A stretch of DNA of 38,254 nucleotides, from NCBI GenBank assembly GCA_024638815.1, contig JAHEJM010000032.1:1-38254 (forward strand), read 5' to 3'. The position numbers and the translations under genes were made by a program. The stretch comes from Acidimicrobiales bacterium. Lineage in GTDB: Bacteria; Actinomycetota; Acidimicrobiia; Acidimicrobiales; SZUA-35. The notes below the pieces were generated by a model that did not search any database, was not told the origin of the DNA, and saw nothing but the letters and a program-made list of their open reading frames with translations. Positions 13,583 to 32,420 of the stretch are shown here, in pieces. Position 1 is the first letter of the stretch, and every line of letters begins with the position of its first letter.

Positions 13583-16162
13583 CTAGAGGCTGTAGGCCCG
13601 TAGCCAGGCGAGCACGGCGCCGCCGGTGTCGGCCGATGCCTCCCGGTCGACCCGGCCCTCGATGCGCCAGGCATCGATGCCATCGGGGTCGTGGAGGGTC
13701 TGGGTGGCCAGCCCGGCGTCATGATCATAGAAGAACCGGGTTCGTGCTCTGGCCTCGGCATCGATCCGCACCTCGTCGAATTCGTCCCAGTAGTGGGCCA
13801 ATTCGACCTCCGGATCCCGATCATCGGACCCTGTGGGCAGCAGGTCGTAACGATGCCGGGCGATGAACTCCACCCATCGGAACATCTCGTTGCGGACCAT
13901 GACGGTGAAGGCCCGCCGATTGGTGGTGATGTCGTCGGCGTCGACCCCCGGCGGGCCCACGGAGGGGGAGTGGGGGACGTCGGCGTCGAGGTCATCGGCC
14001 GCTGCCGTGAGCTGCTCCCACTCGTCGATCAGGCTGGAGTCGACCTGGCGGACCACGGCTCCCAGCCATTCGACGACATCCATCACCTCGTCGGTGGCCG
14101 AATCGGCCGGTACGTTCTGGATCAGGGCCTTGTAGGTGTCGGTCAGATAACGCAGGACCACTCCCTCGGAACGCTTCAGCCCATAGTGATTGATGTACTC
14201 CCTGAACGTCATGGCCTGGGTCAGCATGTCCCGCACGATCGACTTCGGCTTGACGTTGTCGCCACCGACCCAGGGATGATGAATCCGGAAACGGTCGAAG
14301 CTCTCGTAGATTCGGTCTTTTTCCGGCTTGGGGTGCTCGACCTCGGCCAGTTTCTCCATGCGCTCCTCATACTCCACCCCCCGCGCCTTCATGTCGGCCA
14401 TGAGTTCGTCCTTGGCCTTGTTGATCTGGGCGGCCAGGATGACGCCCGGGGACTCGAGCACCGATTCGATGGTGCTCAACACCGACAGGGCGTAGCCGGG
14501 ATCGTCCCGATCGAGTTCGTCGACGGCCTCGATGGCCCACAACGACAGCGGCTGGTGGAGGGCGAACTCGTCTTGGAGGTCGAAGTTGACCCGGATCGTG
14601 CGTCCCTCGGCGTCGGGCTCGTCAAGCAGCTCCAGTAGGTCGGCGTCCAGCAACGATCGGTACATGGCGATGGCCCGCTTGATGTGGCCCCGCTGCCGTT
14701 TCCGGGTTTCGTGGTTGTCGGTCAGCAGCCGTTTGACCGCCCCGCAGCCGTCGCCCGGTCGGTCCAGCATGGTCAGCAGCATCTGGTGGGTCACCTGGAA
14801 CGATGAGGTCAGCGGCTCGGGTTCGCCGGTGATCAGCTTGTCAAAGGTGTCCTCGTTCCAGTGGGCGTAGCGCCGCTCCGGGGGCTTCTTCTTGACCACC
14901 TTCTTGCGGTTCCTGTTCTTGTCCTTGGCCGCTTGGGCCGCCTTCGCCTCGGCTCGGAGGTTGTCGACCACGTGTTCCGGGGCCTGGGCCCAGACATAGC
15001 CGACATGGTCGAAGCCCCGACGACCGGCCCGGCCGGCGATCTGCTGGAATTCCCGATTGGTCAGCACCCGAGTGGTCGATCCGTCGTATTTGTAGAGCTG
15101 GGTGAACAGCACCGAGCGAATCGGGACGTTGACGCCGACCCCCAAGGTGTCGGTGCCACAGATGATCTTGAGCAACCCCTCCTGAGCCAGCTTCTCGACC
15201 AGCAGTCGATACTTGGGCAGCAGGCCGGCATGGTGGACGCCGACGCCGCCCAGAATGTAGCGGCGAAGATCCTTGCCCACCGGTGAGTCGAACTTGAAGC
15301 CCCCGACGGCCTGCTTGACCAGGTCTTTCTGGGTCTTGGACAACGGGTCGAGCGACAGATAGCCCTGGGCCGCCTCGGTTGCCTCCCGCTGGGTGAAGTG
15401 CACCAGATAGATGGGGGCCCGATCCTGTTCCAGCAGGTCGGAGATCGACTGGTGAAGGGTGGTTCGTCGGTACTCGAATTCGAGGGGCACGGGCCGTTCG
15501 GCCGAGGTGACGAGGGTGGTGGGCCGGCCGGTGCGGCGGGTCAGATCCTCGCAGAAGAAGTCGGTGGATCCCAGGGTGGCCGACATCAACAGGAACTGGG
15601 CGTGGGACAGCTCGAGCAGCGGCACCTGCCACGCCCAGCCCCGTTGAGGATCGGCGTAGTAGTGGAACTCGTCGGCGATGACCATGTCGACATCGGTGTC
15701 CTCACCGTTCCGAAGGGCCCGGTTGGCCAGGATTTCCGCCGTGCAACAGATGATGGGGGCATCGGGGTTGATGGAGGCGTCGCCGGTGATCATGCCCACT
15801 CGCTCGGTTCCGAAGTCGCGGCGGAGGGCGAAGAACTTCTCCGAGACGAGGGCTTTGATGGGGGCGGTGTAGAAGCTGCGGCGACCGGTGGCCAGGGCCA
15901 TGAAATGACCGGCCGCCGCCACCAGAGATTTGCCCGACCCGGTCGGGGTGTTGAGGATGACGTGGTTGCCGGCCAGGAGTTCAAGGATGGCCTCCTCCTG
16001 GGCCGGATAGAGCTCGATGCCCTGGGTGACGGCGAAATCGACGAATCCGTCGAGCAGTTCGTCCGGTGCGGGTTCACCGCTGCCGGCTCCGTGACCGGAA
16101 CCGGGCGGAAGGTAGGCGACCAGGGAGGGGACGTCGGTAGGTTGCGCAGCCTCGATGCTCAC
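13583..16162 (-). CDS. Ski2/Mtr4-like DEAD/DEAH helicase with DUF3516 domain
   Basis: 859 residues from the GTG at 16162. Helicase motifs are TPTGSGKS (Walker A, 72-79), APIKALVSEKF (Ia), DEFH (164-167), MSATLGSTDFF (III) and QIAGRAGRRG (VI). The C-terminal half matches the DUF3516 domain of actinobacterial Ski2-like helicases: a Lys/Arg-rich linker (KDKNRNRKKVVKKK) is followed by long helical regions. Such enzymes unwind RNA or RNA-DNA in the cytoplasm, but this group's target is not established. The start overlaps the cofE stop as GTGA, so it is coupled to the F420 genes with no evident shared role. The open frame upstream to 16429 lies inside cofE and is not protein-like. Confidence 0.93.
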   Translation of the reverse strand: MSIEAAQPTDVPSLVAYLPPGSGHGAGSGEPAPDELLDGFVDFAVTQGIELYPAQEEAILELLAGNHVILNTPTGSGKSLVAAAGHFMALATGRRSFYTAPIKALVSEKFFALRRDFGTERVGMITGDASINPDAPIICCTAEILANRALRNGEDTDVDMVIADEFHYYADPQRGWAWQVPLLELSHAQFLLMSATLGSTDFFCEDLTRRTGRPTTLVTSAERPVPLEFEYRRTTLHQSISDLLEQDRAPIYLVHFTQREATEAAQGYLSLDPLSKTQKDLVKQAVGGFKFDSPVGKDLRRYILGGVGVHHAGLLPKYRLLVEKLAQEGLLKIICGTDTLGVGVNVPIRSVLFTQLYKYDGSTTRVLTNREFQQIAGRAGRRGFDHVGYVWAQAPEHVVDNLRAEAKAAQAAKDKNRNRKKVVKKKPPERRYAHWNEDTFDKLITGEPEPLTSSFQVTHQMLLTMLDRPGDGCGAVKRLLTDNHETRKRQRGHIKRAIAMYRSLLDADLLELLDEPDAEGRTIRVNFDLQDEFALHQPLSLWAIEAVDELDRDDPGYALSVLSTIESVLESPGVILAAQINKAKDELMADMKARGVEYEERMEKLAEVEHPKPEKDRIYESFDRFRIHHPWVGGDNVKPKSIVRDMLTQAMTFREYINHYGLKRSEGVVLRYLTDTYKALIQNVPADSATDEVMDVVEWLGAVVRQVDSSLIDEWEQLTAAADDLDADVPHSPSVGPPGVDADDITTNRRAFTVMVRNEMFRWVEFIARHRYDLLPTGSDDRDPEVELAHYWDEFDEVRIDAEARARTRFFYDHDAGLATQTLHDPDGIDAWRIEGRVDREASADTGGAVLAWLRAYSL

Positions 16163-16917
16163 CGGAACAGGTCCTCGCCGGGATGGCGAATCACCTGCTC
16201 GGCCACCGAACCGGGCCCGAACCACTCCGGACCGCCACCCCGGATGACGGCCACTGCGATCCCGGTGGCCTTGCCCCTGACCAACTCGGCCGCCGCCGCC
16301 AGTTCGTCGACCAGGCAGACCTCGGTCACGTGGAGTTGCCGCCCACCGGCATCCGGGGTGCCTCGCAGATCGAGAATGGGCTTGAGACCGGCACATCCCA
16401 GGGCGATATCGGTCAGGCCCCGCCGCCATGGCCGGCCGAAGGTGTCGGCCACGATCACCCCGACGTTCACCCCGTGGCGGCCGGCCACCGCATCGCGAAT
16501 CCTTCGAGCCGATCGATCGGAGTCCTCGGGTAAGAGTGCGGCCACGTCGGGCGCCACATTCGATCGATCGATCCCGGCGTTGGCGCAGACGAATCCGTGC
16601 CTGGTCTCGCTGATGATCAGATCACCCCGCCGTCGCAGGATACGAGCCGATTCCCGCTCCACCAGGGGCTTGTGAGCCAGGGGATCGCCCGGGTCGACCG
16701 GGACCAGGCGGTCCTCGGCCTTCGACACCACCTTCTGGCTCACCACCAGCACATCGTGGTCGTGCAGACCGCAGGACTGGAGGCAGGCGTCGATGATCAG
16801 CCTGGCCAGATCGTCTCCGGGCCGGATCTCCGGGAGGCCGGGTACCGGGATGATCTGCAGCCCGATCGGCCGCGCCGTATCGGCGGTTCTCGGAGACGCT
16901 GAATCCGATTGGGTCAT
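16159..16917 (-). CDS. cofE: Coenzyme F420-0:L-glutamate ligase, single-domain
   Basis: 252 residues. CofE adds glutamate to F420-0 using GTP. Family motifs are IIPVPGLPEIRPGDDLARLI, VLVVSQKVVSKAEDR, ETRHGFVCANAGIDRSN, VGVIVADTFGRPWRRGLTDIA and the C-terminal GGGPEWFGPGS. In mycobacteria the orthologue (FbiB) carries a C-terminal FMN domain that reduces dehydro-F420; here the protein ends after the ligase domain, so that reduction would need another enzyme. The ATG at 16917 lies 14 bp after the cofD stop, and its own stop overlaps the helicase start. Intact motifs suggest it is still under selection although cofD upstream is interrupted. Confidence 0.93.
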   Translation of the reverse strand: MTQSDSASPRTADTARPIGLQIIPVPGLPEIRPGDDLARLIIDACLQSCGLHDHDVLVVSQKVVSKAEDRLVPVDPGDPLAHKPLVERESARILRRRGDLIISETRHGFVCANAGIDRSNVAPDVAALLPEDSDRSARRIRDAVAGRHGVNVGVIVADTFGRPWRRGLTDIALGCAGLKPILDLRGTPDAGGRQLHVTEVCLVDELAAAAELVRGKATGIAVAVIRGGGPEWFGPGSVAEQVIRHPGEDLFR

Positions 16918-16931
16918 GGGCTGGTCGCTCG

Positions 16932-17891
16932 CTACCGCCGTCCGGTCGGGGCCAGAACCGTGGTTCGGGCCAGATCGGCCGCCCGGCGGGGTTCGCTCAT
17001 GATGGTGTCGGTCACCACCGAGGACAAGCCTAGCGACTCGATGGCCGGTGCTTGATCGGCGTCGACCTCGTCGATGACCAGAGTGCCGGCGATCGACCGG
17101 TACCAGCCGGCGATGCCGGCCACCGATGCCTGGTGACCCAACTCCGCCAGCATGCGATCGGCCGGACCTTTCAGGGCCTTGCCACCGACGATGGGCGACA
17201 CCGCGACCACCGAGGACCGTCGGGCCTCCAATATCGGCCAGACACCGTCGATGGCCAGGATGGGATCGATGGAGACCACGGGGTTCGAGGGGGCGATCAC
17301 GACCACGTCGGCCCGTTACAGCGCCTCCAGGACTCCGGGCCCGGGGCGGGCCCCGTCGGCGCCGGCGAATCGAACCGAGGTGACGGTCACATCATGGCGG
17401 CGACGCACGAAGTACTCCTGGAACGGGATCTCGCCCTCGTCCACGGTTGTGATCATGGTCCGAATGCGGTCGTTGCTGGCCGGCAGGACGGCCAGCCTCA
17501 GCCCCCAGGCGGCCGCCAGCTCGGCTGTCACTTCGTGAAGCAGCGCCCCCTGGGAAAGCCGTTCGGTTCGGAACAGATGGGTGCCGAGGTCCCGATCGCC
17601 CAGACTGAACCAGTCCACGCCGCCGTAGTGCCTTACCATGTCCATCGCCTGCCAGGTCTCGCCTTCGAGGCCCCAACCCCGCTCCCGGCTGCCGGCTCCG
17701 GCCAGGGTGTAGACGATGGTGTCGATGTCGGGAGAGATGCGCAGACCGTGGAGCACGAGATCATCGGCCACGTTGACGATGGCCGTGATGTCGTCGTCGC
17801 TCATCACCTGACGCAGACCTTGCAGGAACCGGGCGGCGCCCACGCCCCCACACAGGACGGCTACCGAACCGTCGAATCGTTCCCGCCCCAC
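16932..17891 (-). pseudogene. cofD: CofD (FbiA), F420 2-phospholactate-type transferase, interrupted by in-frame TAA
   Basis: CofD joins the phosphoenolpyruvyl or phospholactyl moiety to the deazaflavin Fo in F420 synthesis. Reading from the GTG at 17891, motifs are in order: SVAVLCGGVGAARFLQGL, VNVADDLVLHGLRISPD, DTIVYTLAG and WFSLGDRDLGTHLFRTERL. At codon 192 (17318-17316) there is a TAA; the same frame then continues RADVVVIAPSNPVVSIDPIL to the normal C-terminus, 319 codons in all, the usual family length. There is no frameshift: one base change explains it. GTG codons at 17306 and 17300 lie just after the TAA, so reinitiation could yield two chains (191 and about 124 residues). Sequencing error, recent nonsense mutation and a split gene are all possible. 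It starts 8 bp after gmd. Confidence 0.9.
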
Positions 17892-17899
17892 GGCGCCCG

Positions 17900-18877
17900 C
17901 TACGCCGGCCGGGTCAGCTGGCGACCGACCAGTTCCATGTCCGATTCCATCATCATGGCCACCAGCTCGGGAAAAGCCGTCCTTGGTTTCCATCCCAGCA
18001 CGGTGGCCGCTTTCGACGGATCGCCGATGAGTAGATCGACCTCGGCCGGACGCATGTATCGCTCGTCCTGCACCACCCACTCCCGCCAGTCGAGACCGAC
18101 CATGCCGAACGCCAACTCGCAGAACTCCTGCACCGAATGGGTTTCGCCCGTGGCGATGACGTAGTCGTCGGGTTCGTCCTGTTGGAGCATCAGCCACATG
18201 GCTTCCACGTAGTCCCCGGCGAATCCCCAGTCCCGCTGGGGGTCGAGGTCGCCCAACCGCAGTTCCCGAGCCAGGCCGTGCTTGATCTTGGCCACGTTGT
18301 AGGTGATCTTGCGGGTCACGAACTCCAGGCCGCGACGGGGGCTTTCGTGGTTGAACAGGATGCCGCTGGAGGCGTGCAGGTCGTAGCTCTCCCGGAAGTT
18401 CACGGTGATCCAATGGCCGTAGACCTTGGCTGCACCATAGGGGCTACGGGGATAGAACGGCGTGTTCTCGGTCTGCGGCACCTCGACCACCTTGCCGAAC
18501 ATCTCCGAGGACGACGCCTGGTAGAACCGCACATCCTGATCGCACTGTTGGATGGCGTTGAGTAACCGGGTCACCCCCAAGGCCGTGGTTTCGCCCGTCA
18601 GCACCGCCTGCTGCCACGATGTCTGGACGAACGACTGGGCCGCCAGATTGTAGATCTCGTCGGGACGATGCTCCCTCATGATGTGGCGCAGCGAGGTCTC
18701 GTCGAGGAGGTCGCCCTGAACGATCTCGATGTCGTCCTGGATGGGAGCCACCCGCTCGAAGTTGAGGGTGCTGGTGCGGCGGACCATGCCGATGACGTGA
18801 TAGCCCCTATCCAGCAGGAACTCGGCCAGATACGAGCCGTCTTGGCCGGTGAGGCCGGTGATGAGTGCGCGTTTCAC
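17900..18877 (-). CDS. gmd: GDP-mannose 4,6-dehydratase
   Basis: 325 residues. It converts GDP-mannose to GDP-4-keto-6-deoxymannose with bound NADP. SDR motifs are [19 protein letters not shown], the SSSEMFG motif, [11 protein letters not shown] (Tyr/Lys pair) and the GMD-specific [16 protein letters not shown] and [17 protein letters not shown]. The GTG at 18877 is the start; no strong ribosome binding site is seen. It heads the gmd-cofD-cofE-helicase run. Its partner reductase gene rmd lies 204 bp upstream on the same strand, so GDP-D-rhamnose is the likely product of the pair. Confidence 0.96.
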
Positions 18878-29403: not shown

Positions 29404-29499
29404 GTGAGTCTTTTCCGGTACCGGGTCGTCCAGCCCGCCCTCGCCGCCGACTGGCGATGGGTGATGGTGGGGGACGGCGGGCGGAGCGCGGTGCCGTGA
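29404..29499 (+). CDS. Candidate 31-codon leader ORF coupled to the membrane protein
   Basis: From the GTG at 29404 the frame encodes MSLFRYRVVQPALAADWRWV plus 11 more residues and stops at TGA 29497-29499. That stop overlaps the GTG start at 29496 of the large membrane protein as GTGA. TACTAT, 10 nt upstream, could make it leaderless. The overlap and promoter position are the only evidence; the peptide has no recognised motif. It could act as a translational leader. Chance occurrence cannot be excluded for so short a frame. Confidence 0.3.
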   Translation: MSLFRYRVVQPALAADWRWVMVGDGGRSAVP

Positions 29500-32420
29500 C
29501 CACCGTGGGGGAGCCCACAGTACGCGACCGCTCGGTCGCCGACCGACTCCGCGACGGCCGTCCGGGGCGGGTGGGGTCGCAACGACCGCCGGTCGTCGAG
29601 TTCTCGGCCGTCCGGTCCCTGGGCGACCGCCTGACCGATGGTCGCGGTCGACTGGGCCTGCTGGTGGCACTGGTTTGCTCCACCTTCGTGTTCGGGCTCA
29701 TGAACTGGCCCGACGCATCGTCGATCGACGACCTCACCGACCCCCTTCTGTTCGCCGACACCACGCCGTCGGGCGGTGACATGGGGGCCCACGTCTGGGG
29801 TCCCGCCTACCTGCGGGACCATCTCCTGCCCCAACTCCGGCTGACCGGGTGGACCGCCGATTGGTACGCCGGATTCCCCGCCTACCACTTCTACATGGTG
29901 GTGCCGTCGCTGGCCATCGTCGTCCTCAACGCCGGATTTCCCTGGTTCGTGGCCCTGCCGATGTTGGCCGCTGCCGGCTACGGGATCAACCGCGCCGCCC
30001 GGGAGTCGTGGTGGCGAGGTCCCCGGTCGACAGGGGCCGTGGCCGCGGTGCTGGTAGCCCTCGGCCTGCTCCTGTTCTCCTTCCCCTACGGCATTGCCTT
30101 CAAGCTGGTGTCGGTGTCGGGTCTGGTTGCCTTTCCACTTACGGCGTGGGCCATGGGCCGGCTGGCTCGGGCTCCCGAGCCGGTTCCCGCCTTTCTCTCG
30201 TTGGCCGCGTTCATCTTCCTCTTCGACACCAACTTCACCATCTACGGCGGCAACATCACCTCCACCCTGGCCGGCGAGTTCGCCTTCTCCATGAGCCTCT
30301 GTCTGACCCTGGTGGCCATCGGCCTGGTCATCAGAGGCATGGACGACGATCGGTGGCGAGTGCCTGGATCCATCGTGATCGCCCTCGTGGCGTTGTGCCA
30401 CCTGATCCCGATCTTCTTCATCATCCCGGCCCTCATGTTGGCCACCCTGTCCGATGGCGCAACGTCGGCCCGGGCCTGGACGGCGGCCGGTACCGTCGCC
30501 CTCGGTCTGGTGCCCATTGCGTTCGCCGATGGCACGGCTGTGGCCATCCGGGGCCTGGCCGTGGTCGCCGTGCTCGTGGTCTTCCTGGCCGCCATGTATG
30601 GCGATTCGGTCCTGGCCCGGCGATCGTGGTGGCTCATGGCCGTCGGACCGGTGGCCATTGCTCTGTCCGCCTTCTGGCTTCTGCCCTTCTACCTTCGCGA
30701 GCCCTATTTCAATGACATGGGCTGGGAGCGTCTGAACGACATCGGACCGCCGATGTTGACGGTTCCCATGAAACTGGCCTTGCCGGTGGCGGCCATCGGT
30801 CTGCTGCTCGCCTACACCGCCCGGGAACGGATCGGCATGATCTTCGCCGGTACCGGAGCGGTCTTCGCCGCCGCCGTGGCCAACCTGGGTGAGGGGCCGC
30901 TGTGGAACGCCCGCCTCCTTCCTTTCTACTATCTGTCGGTTTACGTGGTGGCCGCAGTCGGTGTGGCCTTCGTCGTGCGGCTCGGAGCGTCGTTGGTGAG
31001 CGGTAACCTTCGAGGGCCCAACTCCGAAGTGTTGGCGGTGTCCGCCGTGGCCGGCGCCGCCGCAGTGTTCGTGGCCGTGGCCATGCCGCTGCGGTTGATG
31101 CCGTTCGGCCAGATCACCGACGACGGTCACTACCAGTGGTTGGTGTTCACCAACCGGGCCCGGAGCGCAGTGCCGGGCTGGGCCGAGTGGAACTACAGCG
31201 GCTACGAGCGCAAGGAGTCCTACGCCGAGTATCGCCAGGTCGTCGTCGAGATGGACCGCATCGGCCGGGACGAGGGGTGCGGTCGGGCCATGTGGGAGTA
31301 CACCAGTGATCTCGACCGCTACGGAACGCCGATGGCGCTGATGCTGCTTCCGCACTGGACCGATGGCTGTATCGGCTCGATGGAGGGTCTCTACTTCGAG
31401 TCGTCGGCGACCACGCCGTTCCATTTCCTCAACCAGAGCGTGCTGTCGGATTCGCCGTCCCGGGCCCAACGCGACCTTCCCTATAAGAGTTTCGACATCG
31501 ATCTCGGCGTGAACCAGCTCCAGCTCATGGGTGTTCGCTACTACATGGCCCAGTCGGACGAGGCCATCGCCGCCGCCGACGACCATCCCGATCTGACCCG
31601 GGTGGGTGAGGCCCAACCGTTCGTGATCTATGAGGTTGCGGGCTCGGCCCTGGTCGAAGGTCTCGACTACTCACCGGTGGTGGTGTCGGGTCGGACCGAG
31701 GAGCAGGTCGGTGAAGAATCGGCCGGCCGATTCGACATCGGCTGGGTCGGTCAGGCCGTGGCTCAGTACAACGACCCCGCCGCCTTCCTGGCCCTGCCGG
31801 CCCAGGACGGTCCCGACGCCTGGATTCGCCGGGAGTCATTGACCGTCGACGACGGTGAACCGGTGGATCGGGCCGAGGTCTCCGAGATCGAAGCCGGTAC
31901 CTCGACGGTGTCCTTCACCGTCGATCAGCTCGGCGAGCCGGTTCTGGTCAAGACCTCGTTCTTCCCCAATTGGAGTGTCGACGGTGCAGAAGGGCCATGG
32001 CGGGCCGGGCCGAATCTCATGGTGGTGGTGCCAACGGCCAACGAGGTCACCCTCAGCTACGGGCGCACAGGCGTCGAGTGGCTGTCCATCGTCGTGACGC
32101 TGGTGGGGTTGGGGGCCCTGGTCGGGCTGCGACGGTTGGAGCGAGGCAACGTGCCGGGCGCCTCCGTTGTCATCGGGCACGATGTCCCTGCGGTGGCCGG
32201 CACCGTTGGGGCGGTCGCCCGTCCTCCCGATGCTCGACCGGTTGAGGCCCCGCTCATCCGCCCGTCGCCGGTCGAGATGGGGTCCCTGGACGGCGGCGTC
32301 GAGCAACCCGCCGATGGTGCCGTCCCGGCCGACTCCCCCCCTGAACGGCATCACCACCGTGGTGGTGATGCCGTGAGTGACGAAGCCGCCGACGGGGATC
32401 CGGCGGCGAGAGCCGACTAG
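29496..32420 (+). CDS. Large membrane protein with PTPS-related (PF10131-type) region
   Basis: 974 residues from the GTG at 29496; an in-frame ATG at 29457 would add 13. After a basic tail come a first helix (LGLLVALVCSTFVFGLM) and the motif SGGDMGAHVWGPAYLRDHLL, with WYAGFPAYHFYMVVPSLAIV, which matches the 6-pyruvoyl-tetrahydropterin-synthase-related membrane family (the name does not imply that activity). Many further helices follow, then an extracellular domain with a beta-rich end (VLVKTSFFPNWSVDG) like YfhO-type proteins, a last helix and a low-complexity cytoplasmic tail. The layout resembles GT-C transferases that use polyprenyl-phosphate sugars. The GtrA-GT2 fusion next to it could make such a donor; that link is inference. 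Confidence 0.85.
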   Translation: MTTVGEPTVRDRSVADRLRDGRPGRVGSQRPPVVEFSAVRSLGDRLTDGRGRLGLLVALVCSTFVFGLMNWPDASSIDDLTDPLLFADTTPSGGDMGAHVWGPAYLRDHLLPQLRLTGWTADWYAGFPAYHFYMVVPSLAIVVLNAGFPWFVALPMLAAAGYGINRAARESWWRGPRSTGAVAAVLVALGLLLFSFPYGIAFKLVSVSGLVAFPLTAWAMGRLARAPEPVPAFLSLAAFIFLFDTNFTIYGGNITSTLAGEFAFSMSLCLTLVAIGLVIRGMDDDRWRVPGSIVIALVALCHLIPIFFIIPALMLATLSDGATSARAWTAAGTVALGLVPIAFADGTAVAIRGLAVVAVLVVFLAAMYGDSVLARRSWWLMAVGPVAIALSAFWLLPFYLREPYFNDMGWERLNDIGPPMLTVPMKLALPVAAIGLLLAYTARERIGMIFAGTGAVFAAAVANLGEGPLWNARLLPFYYLSVYVVAAVGVAFVVRLGASLVSGNLRGPNSEVLAVSAVAGAAAVFVAVAMPLRLMPFGQITDDGHYQWLVFTNRARSAVPGWAEWNYSGYERKESYAEYRQVVVEMDRIGRDEGCGRAMWEYTSDLDRYGTPMALMLLPHWTDGCIGSMEGLYFESSATTPFHFLNQSVLSDSPSRAQRDLPYKSFDIDLGVNQLQLMGVRYYMAQSDEAIAAADDHPDLTRVGEAQPFVIYEVAGSALVEGLDYSPVVVSGRTEEQVGEESAGRFDIGWVGQAVAQYNDPAAFLALPAQDGPDAWIRRESLTVDDGEPVDRAEVSEIEAGTSTVSFTVDQLGEPVLVKTSFFPNWSVDGAEGPWRAGPNLMVVVPTANEVTLSYGRTGVEWLSIVVTLVGLGALVGLRRLERGNVPGASVVIGHDVPAVAGTVGAVARPPDARPVEAPLIRPSPVEMGSLDGGVEQPADGAVPADSPPERHHHRGGDAVSDEAADGDPAARAD
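32347..32372. repeat. Perfect 12-bp-arm palindrome inside the membrane-protein tail
   Basis: GGCATCACCACC and GGTGGTGATGCC flank a central GT. It lies 46 bp before the stop and encodes part of the low-complexity tail (RHHHRGGDA). In RNA it would form a stable hairpin just before the next gene. Confidence 0.8.

What the first reader, a model, noticed from the sequence alone, without database searches (positions are those of the whole stretch)
17316..17318. Single in-frame TAA splits cofD (F420 biosynthesis) in an otherwise intact cof operon
The cofD frame is continuous for 319 codons from 17891 to 16932 except for one TAA at codon 192. Conserved motifs lie on both sides (SLGDRDLGTHLF before, APSNPVVSIDPIL after) and there is no frameshift. 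cofE downstream is intact. If real, F420 synthesis is lost or depends on read-through or reinitiation: GTG codons occur 3 and 5 codons after the TAA. UGA- or UAG-type recoding does not apply to TAA.
Basis: partly seen in the sequence, partly recalled or inferred. Interest (0 to 1): 0.75.

Follow-up and report, generated by a model that had tools for sequence, protein, structure and literature searches.

The report
Lone stop codon in cofD
One stop codon interrupts the gene for an enzyme that makes the cofactor F420 in an uncultured actinobacterium; it was seen in none of the relatives compared and looks like a recent private mutation or an assembly error rather than a new genetic mechanism.

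Summary
An in-frame TAA lies at 17318-17316 (- strand), codon 192 of a single-copy cofD. TIGR01819 matches positions 2-186 before it and 189-299 after it, with no frameshift.

Comparison makes it ordinary. All 92 other CofD rows aligned have a sense codon in that very variable column. Of 298 genomes sampled from the order, 287 match TIGR01819 (270 over its cut-off); of the best 150 rows, the only ones listed, only this one has a stop inside. The half after the stop shows no decay: 27 of 27 conserved columns are kept and its branch is not lengthened. Other F420 pathway genes and F420-dependent families are present without stops. The only other CofD-family gene found is YvcK. No tRNA with a UUA anticodon was found in an incomplete set. 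No ribosome-binding site at a usual distance precedes the downstream GTGs, and the RNA after the stop is not unusually structured.

Best reading: a private, very recent one-codon change, either a consensus error or minor allele of this draft genome, or a true new nonsense mutation. Reads, not held here, would decide. Interest is low.

The parts
16932..17891 (-). cofD frame (319 codons plus the natural stop TAG), interrupted once
17316..17318 (-). in-frame TAA at codon 192; sense codon in 92 of 92 other rows
17319..17891 (-). upstream piece, 191 aa (TIGR01819 positions 2-186), holds the NVADD and PDID stretches that correspond to the metal-site aspartates of FbiA
   Evidence: correspondence by the alignment
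16935..17315 (-). downstream piece, 127 aa (TIGR01819 positions 189-299); all 27 highly conserved columns kept
17304..17306 (-). first GTG after the TAA (possible reinitiation codon; the nearest GGAGG ends 17 bases upstream of it, inside cofD)
   Evidence: sequence
16162..16917 (-). cofE, F420-0:L-glutamate ligase, intact
17903..18877 (-). GDP-mannose 4,6-dehydratase-type gene directly upstream, also directly upstream of cofD in 37 of 50 relatives examined

Best explanation
A private, very recent one-codon change in an otherwise normal single-copy cofD, most likely a consensus error or a minor-strain allele in a draft genome whose population carries a working CofD. No special decoding is involved. 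Shown: the stop is unique to this genome among those compared, the site is variable, there is no decay after it, and pathway genes and users are kept.
For: 92 of 92 other CofD rows have a sense codon there. Only G000 among the 150 listed rows of the order, and among the 12 genomes of the genus, has a stop inside. 27 of 27 C-half and 44 of 44 N-half conserved columns are kept. The terminal branch is 0.345 (C half) against 0.315 (N half), ratio 1.09; the whole tree has 1.22, and 20 of 27 relatives have a higher ratio. The CofH part of a fused-looking 898-aa frame, CofC, cofE, 29 luciferase-like matches and 7 F420H2_quin_red matches have no stops. Six of the 8 luciferase-like proteins tested (of 29 matches) pass the cut-off of an F420-dependent subfamily. 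The genome is a fragmented assembly, 227 contigs and 90.8% complete, with a 100-N gap in 5 of 20 stretches.
Against: No reads or same-species genome could be examined, so error is not shown. The window itself has no N. In the 381.6 kb of stretches outside the window the scan (914 of 1980 positions scored as if a stop would have been caught) found no other unexplained in-frame stop, so the assembly is not visibly full of such errors. A true new nonsense mutation fits all the data equally well.
Confidence: 0.5

Rival explanations
1. A true, recent nonsense mutation fixed in the sequenced strain: CofD is cut at residue 191, F420 synthesis stops at Fo, and the F420-dependent enzymes idle or use F420 taken up or not at all.
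For: The TAA is in the consensus; no second CofD was found; the piece before the stop lacks the invariant PSNPxxS stretch and what aligns with the GDP-enclosing loop 239-254 of FbiA.
Against: The other pathway genes tested and many users are intact; 270 of 298 genomes sampled from the order have cofD over the cut-off, which speaks for strong need. No second lesion is seen in the gene.
Confidence: 0.37
2. Two-chain CofD by termination and reinitiation at one of the GTGs 9 or 15 bases after the TAA; the halves associate into a working enzyme.
For: GTGs lie just after the stop; the break sits at a very variable position between conserved blocks; both halves remain conserved.
Against: No relative among the listed rows uses this arrangement. 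The nearest GGAGG ends 17 bases before the first GTG, too far for a usual ribosome-binding site (spacing recalled), and it also encodes L-E-A in two relatives of the genus without a stop. Such a young change gives little time for an evolved mechanism.
Confidence: 0.06
3. Read-through of UAA by a suppressor or near-cognate tRNA yields some full-length CofD.
For: Both halves are conserved and a low level of enzyme might suffice. [quoted passage not shown] coli (reference-list passage).
Against: None of the 41 tRNA places plus tRNA-Sec has anticodon TTA or CTA, though the set is incomplete (for example no tRNA-Gly GCC or tRNA-Ser TGA was seen). TAA ends 17 of 198 long frames, so it serves as an ordinary stop. 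The RNA after the stop folds no better than shuffles, z 0.67. Reported read-through was 0.01% for UAG and 0.08% for UGA in P. putida, with UGA about 12% in E. coli (PMC9481147, passages; no UAA figure seen there).
Confidence: 0.04
4. An old pseudogene on the way to F420 loss.
For: The stop itself.
Against: No decay in either half and other pathway genes intact.
Confidence: 0.03

Closest known systems
FbiA (6uvx, the mycobacterial enzyme of PMC7253369) and Methanosarcina CofD (3c3d)
   Same: Same family. The downstream piece alone matches both chains, and the intact relative L035 aligns with both over nearly its whole length.
   Different: One uninterrupted chain in both; here one codon, equivalent to about residue 200 of the FbiA chain by the alignment (counted by eye), is TAA.
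Genes with isolated nonsense codons in draft genomes (sporadic pseudogenes or consensus errors; recalled as a kind)
   Same: A single stop, unique to one genome among those compared, no other lesion.
   Different: Nothing observed sets it apart.
Selenoprotein TGA recoding (machinery present in the same genome: tRNA-Sec, SelB; candidate gene DUF3179)
   Same: An in-frame stop inside a conserved gene.
   Different: cofD has TAA, at a variable column in which no Cys was seen in 92 rows; Sec recoding uses UGA.

Membership tests
CofD/FbiA (TIGR01819) | Score over the curated cut-off across the full profile | tested here: met
   317 bits against 257.45 when the stop is read through by the search; the pieces alone score 198.6 and 102.2, each below the cut-off
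CofD/FbiA (TIGR01819) | One uninterrupted reading frame | tested here: not met
   TAA at codon 192
CofD/FbiA (TIGR01819) | Gene context with cofE | tested here: met
   cofE directly downstream here and within 300 bases on the same strand in 31 of 50 relatives
YvcK-type CofD relative as a substitute | A second CofD equivalog in the genome | tested here: not met
   The only other PF01933 match (C172) is YvcK, 253.5 against 196 bits; TIGR01819 has one match in the genome
Decayed pseudogene | Loss of conserved residues or faster change after the stop | tested here: not met
   27 of 27 conserved columns kept; branch ratio 1.09
UAA recoding or suppression | tRNA reading UAA | tested here: inconclusive
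   No TTA anticodon among the 41 tRNA places and tRNA-Sec found; the genome is 90.8% complete and the tRNA set has gaps
UAA recoding or suppression | The same in-frame stop kept in relatives | tested here: not met
   0 of 92 rows
Assembly or consensus error | Reads disagree with the consensus | not testable with these tools
   No reads held

The most novel reading that the evidence does not exclude
The organism makes a working CofD from two separately translated chains (stop, then reinitiation at the GTG 9 bases on), or by regulated read-through of UAA, so that F420 synthesis is tied to translation termination.
Probability: 0.05. Interest if true: 0.6.

Novelty: new member of a known kind. Interest (0 to 1): 0.12.

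Why it matters
Little, if read as above: a caution that one stop codon in a draft genome should not be scored as loss of a pathway when other pathway genes, the users and the gene's second half are intact. If the mutation is real and fixed, the strain would be a natural case of a bacterium that keeps many F420-dependent enzymes without making F420.

Tried and rejected
Second cofD copy: only YvcK found. Genome-wide TAA reassignment: TAA ends 17 of 198 long frames, and none of 29 PF00296 and 7 PF04075 matches carries a stop. The 198 frames were taken by length alone, so some are not genes: at cofD itself the frame on the opposite strand was taken. Ochre suppressor tRNA: none in the set found. 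Stimulatory RNA structure after the stop: z 0.67. Internal promoter or terminator in 16900-17950: none by consensus scan, which covers sigma-70-type sites only. An apparent broken cofD in L045 was an artefact of my start choice; the frame there is intact. Structure model of an intact relative: the machine was busy each time, so the secondary structure at the site was not modelled. Literature: 'F420, CofD, nonsense' gave 0 papers; 'F420 biosynthesis, cofD, pseudogene' gave 1, seen as a listing only; the search on stop codons in MAGs gave 0. Searches were seen as listings, apart from passages of PMC9312934, PMC7253369 and PMC9481147.

Rows dropped before the 92-row count: the two own-window loci, rows under 230 aa (L014 and L042, cut by contig ends before the site; L045, mis-started, read separately and intact) and identical duplicates; 28 rows come loci and 64 loci. 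For the branch test 27 relatives of at least 290 aa were used with OWN. The 150 rows were counted by eye; the listing stops there, so lower-scoring matches of the order were not seen. In the genus search 12 of 12 genomes match and 11 are over the cut-off; G004 falls below it because its gene is split over two contigs, which I read as contig ends.

Full report
Observation. The frame 17891-16932 (-) reads through cofD with a single TAA at codon 192 and ends at a natural stop. The two pieces match adjoining parts of TIGR01819, leaving out only positions 187-188, and adjoining parts of PF01933.

Host. The window is a complete 38,254-base contig (C56) of a 4.7 Mb genome in 227 contigs, 90.8% complete. 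Its closest named relatives are metagenome-assembled Acidimicrobiales/Acidimicrobiia. No close strain is held: the highest identity in the first half of CofD is about 77% (G034, same family), and the two best DNA matches, G007 and G003 of the same genus, have about 75%.

Comparison. The same place holds a sense codon in 92 of 92 other CofD rows. The column varies freely (T 18, E 18, A 17, D 10, R 9, G 7 and others; one GAA and one CAA among the codons). G007 and G003 have TCG. In the genus, 12 of 12 genomes match TIGR01819, 11 over the cut-off, and only this one has a stop inside. Of 298 genomes sampled from the order, 287 match and 270 are over the cut-off; of the 150 rows listed, the best ones, only this one has a stop inside.

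Age and decay. All 44 highly conserved columns before the stop and all 27 after it are kept; 33 of the other rows also keep all of both, so this is normal for an intact gene. On a fixed tree of 28 sequences the own terminal branch is 0.315 for the first half and 0.345 for the second, a ratio of 1.09; the whole tree's ratio is 1.22, and 20 of 27 relatives have a higher ratio than the own one. The branch is long, so this test would miss a recent change: if the stop is real, it is young.

Pathway. The CofH model matches at 464.1 against 374.1 bits in an 898-aa frame that carries a second, weak match to the same model (33.8 bits), as expected of the fused FbiC; the CofG model itself was not run. 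CofC (114.9 against 105 bits) and CofE are intact. There are 29 PF00296 matches, none with a stop. Of 8 such proteins scanned, 6 pass the cut-off of an F420-dependent subfamily (TIGR03559, 03617 twice, 03841, 03842, 03560); the other two (L122, L126) pass none and score best with FMN-type or other monooxygenase models. There are 7 PF04075 matches, 6 over the cut-off. The only other CofD-family gene found is YvcK. F420 therefore looks to be needed and not otherwise made.

Possible mechanisms of rescue. TAA serves as an ordinary stop here (17 of 198 long frames; TGA 127, TAG 54; the frames were taken by length and some may not be genes). The 41 tRNA places found by covariance search and the tRNA-Sec were typed with ARAGORN; none has a TTA or CTA anticodon. 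That set lacks some expected tRNAs, so absence is not proved. The RNA after the stop is no more structured than shuffles. The GTGs after the stop have no ribosome-binding site at a usual distance; the GGAGG 17 bases before the first GTG encodes residues of CofD and is present in G007 and G003, which have no stop. The metal-binding aspartates 45 and 57 of FbiA lie before the break and the GDP-enclosing loop 239-254 after it (PMC7253369, passages seen; position by the alignment, taking chain numbering as the paper's). Neither piece alone is therefore expected to work; this is inference.

Base rate. A codon-usage scan over 419,854 bases of this genome flagged five stops with coding signal on both sides. 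It would have caught 914 of 1980 positions inside long frames scored as if a stop, and it does not look for frameshifts. Two of the other four are pairs of different genes (prenyltransferase/RecO; BacA/AlaDh_PNT), and one is a BFN-domain gene followed by a frame without a match. The last is a TGA within DUF3179 that is probably selenocysteine: the family is listed as a selenoprotein with UxxC/T (PMC9312934, one table passage), and the genome has tRNA-Sec (66.5 bits; ARAGORN) and SelB (242.9 against 242.25 bits). So cofD is the only unexplained interrupted gene that the scan saw. About 2.7% of random single-base changes in these codons would make a stop (from the sums, 0.2447/9), and TAA is the least likely kind (0.0448 of 0.2447). 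One such event is compatible with a modest number of errors or with one real mutation, and does not tell them apart.

Verdict. A real letter in the assembly, ordinary in meaning: a recent private change or an error. No new mechanism is indicated.

Noticed in passing
L156:5967-5969 (+), G000:C145 of the same genome: In-frame TGA inside a DUF3179 (PF11376) gene, directly before P-L-C (profile 2-64 before, 66-150 after); probably a selenocysteine codon, as the genome has tRNA-Sec and SelB and DUF3179 is listed as a selenoprotein family with UxxC/T. No SECIS search was made.
   Followed up: partly
window 13583-18877 (-): GDP-mannose dehydratase lies directly upstream of cofD in 37 of 50 relatives and cofE within 300 bases downstream in 31 of 50; the DUF3516 DEAD-box helicase is found in 11 of these 50 loci (flanks are cut, so these are lower bounds). 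Elsewhere the window carries phosphomannomutase, phosphomannose isomerase and glycosyltransferase genes.
   Followed up: partly
window 29457-32417 (+): A 987-codon open frame without any Pfam match at E 1e-8, in a stretch of strong negative AT skew.
   Followed up: no
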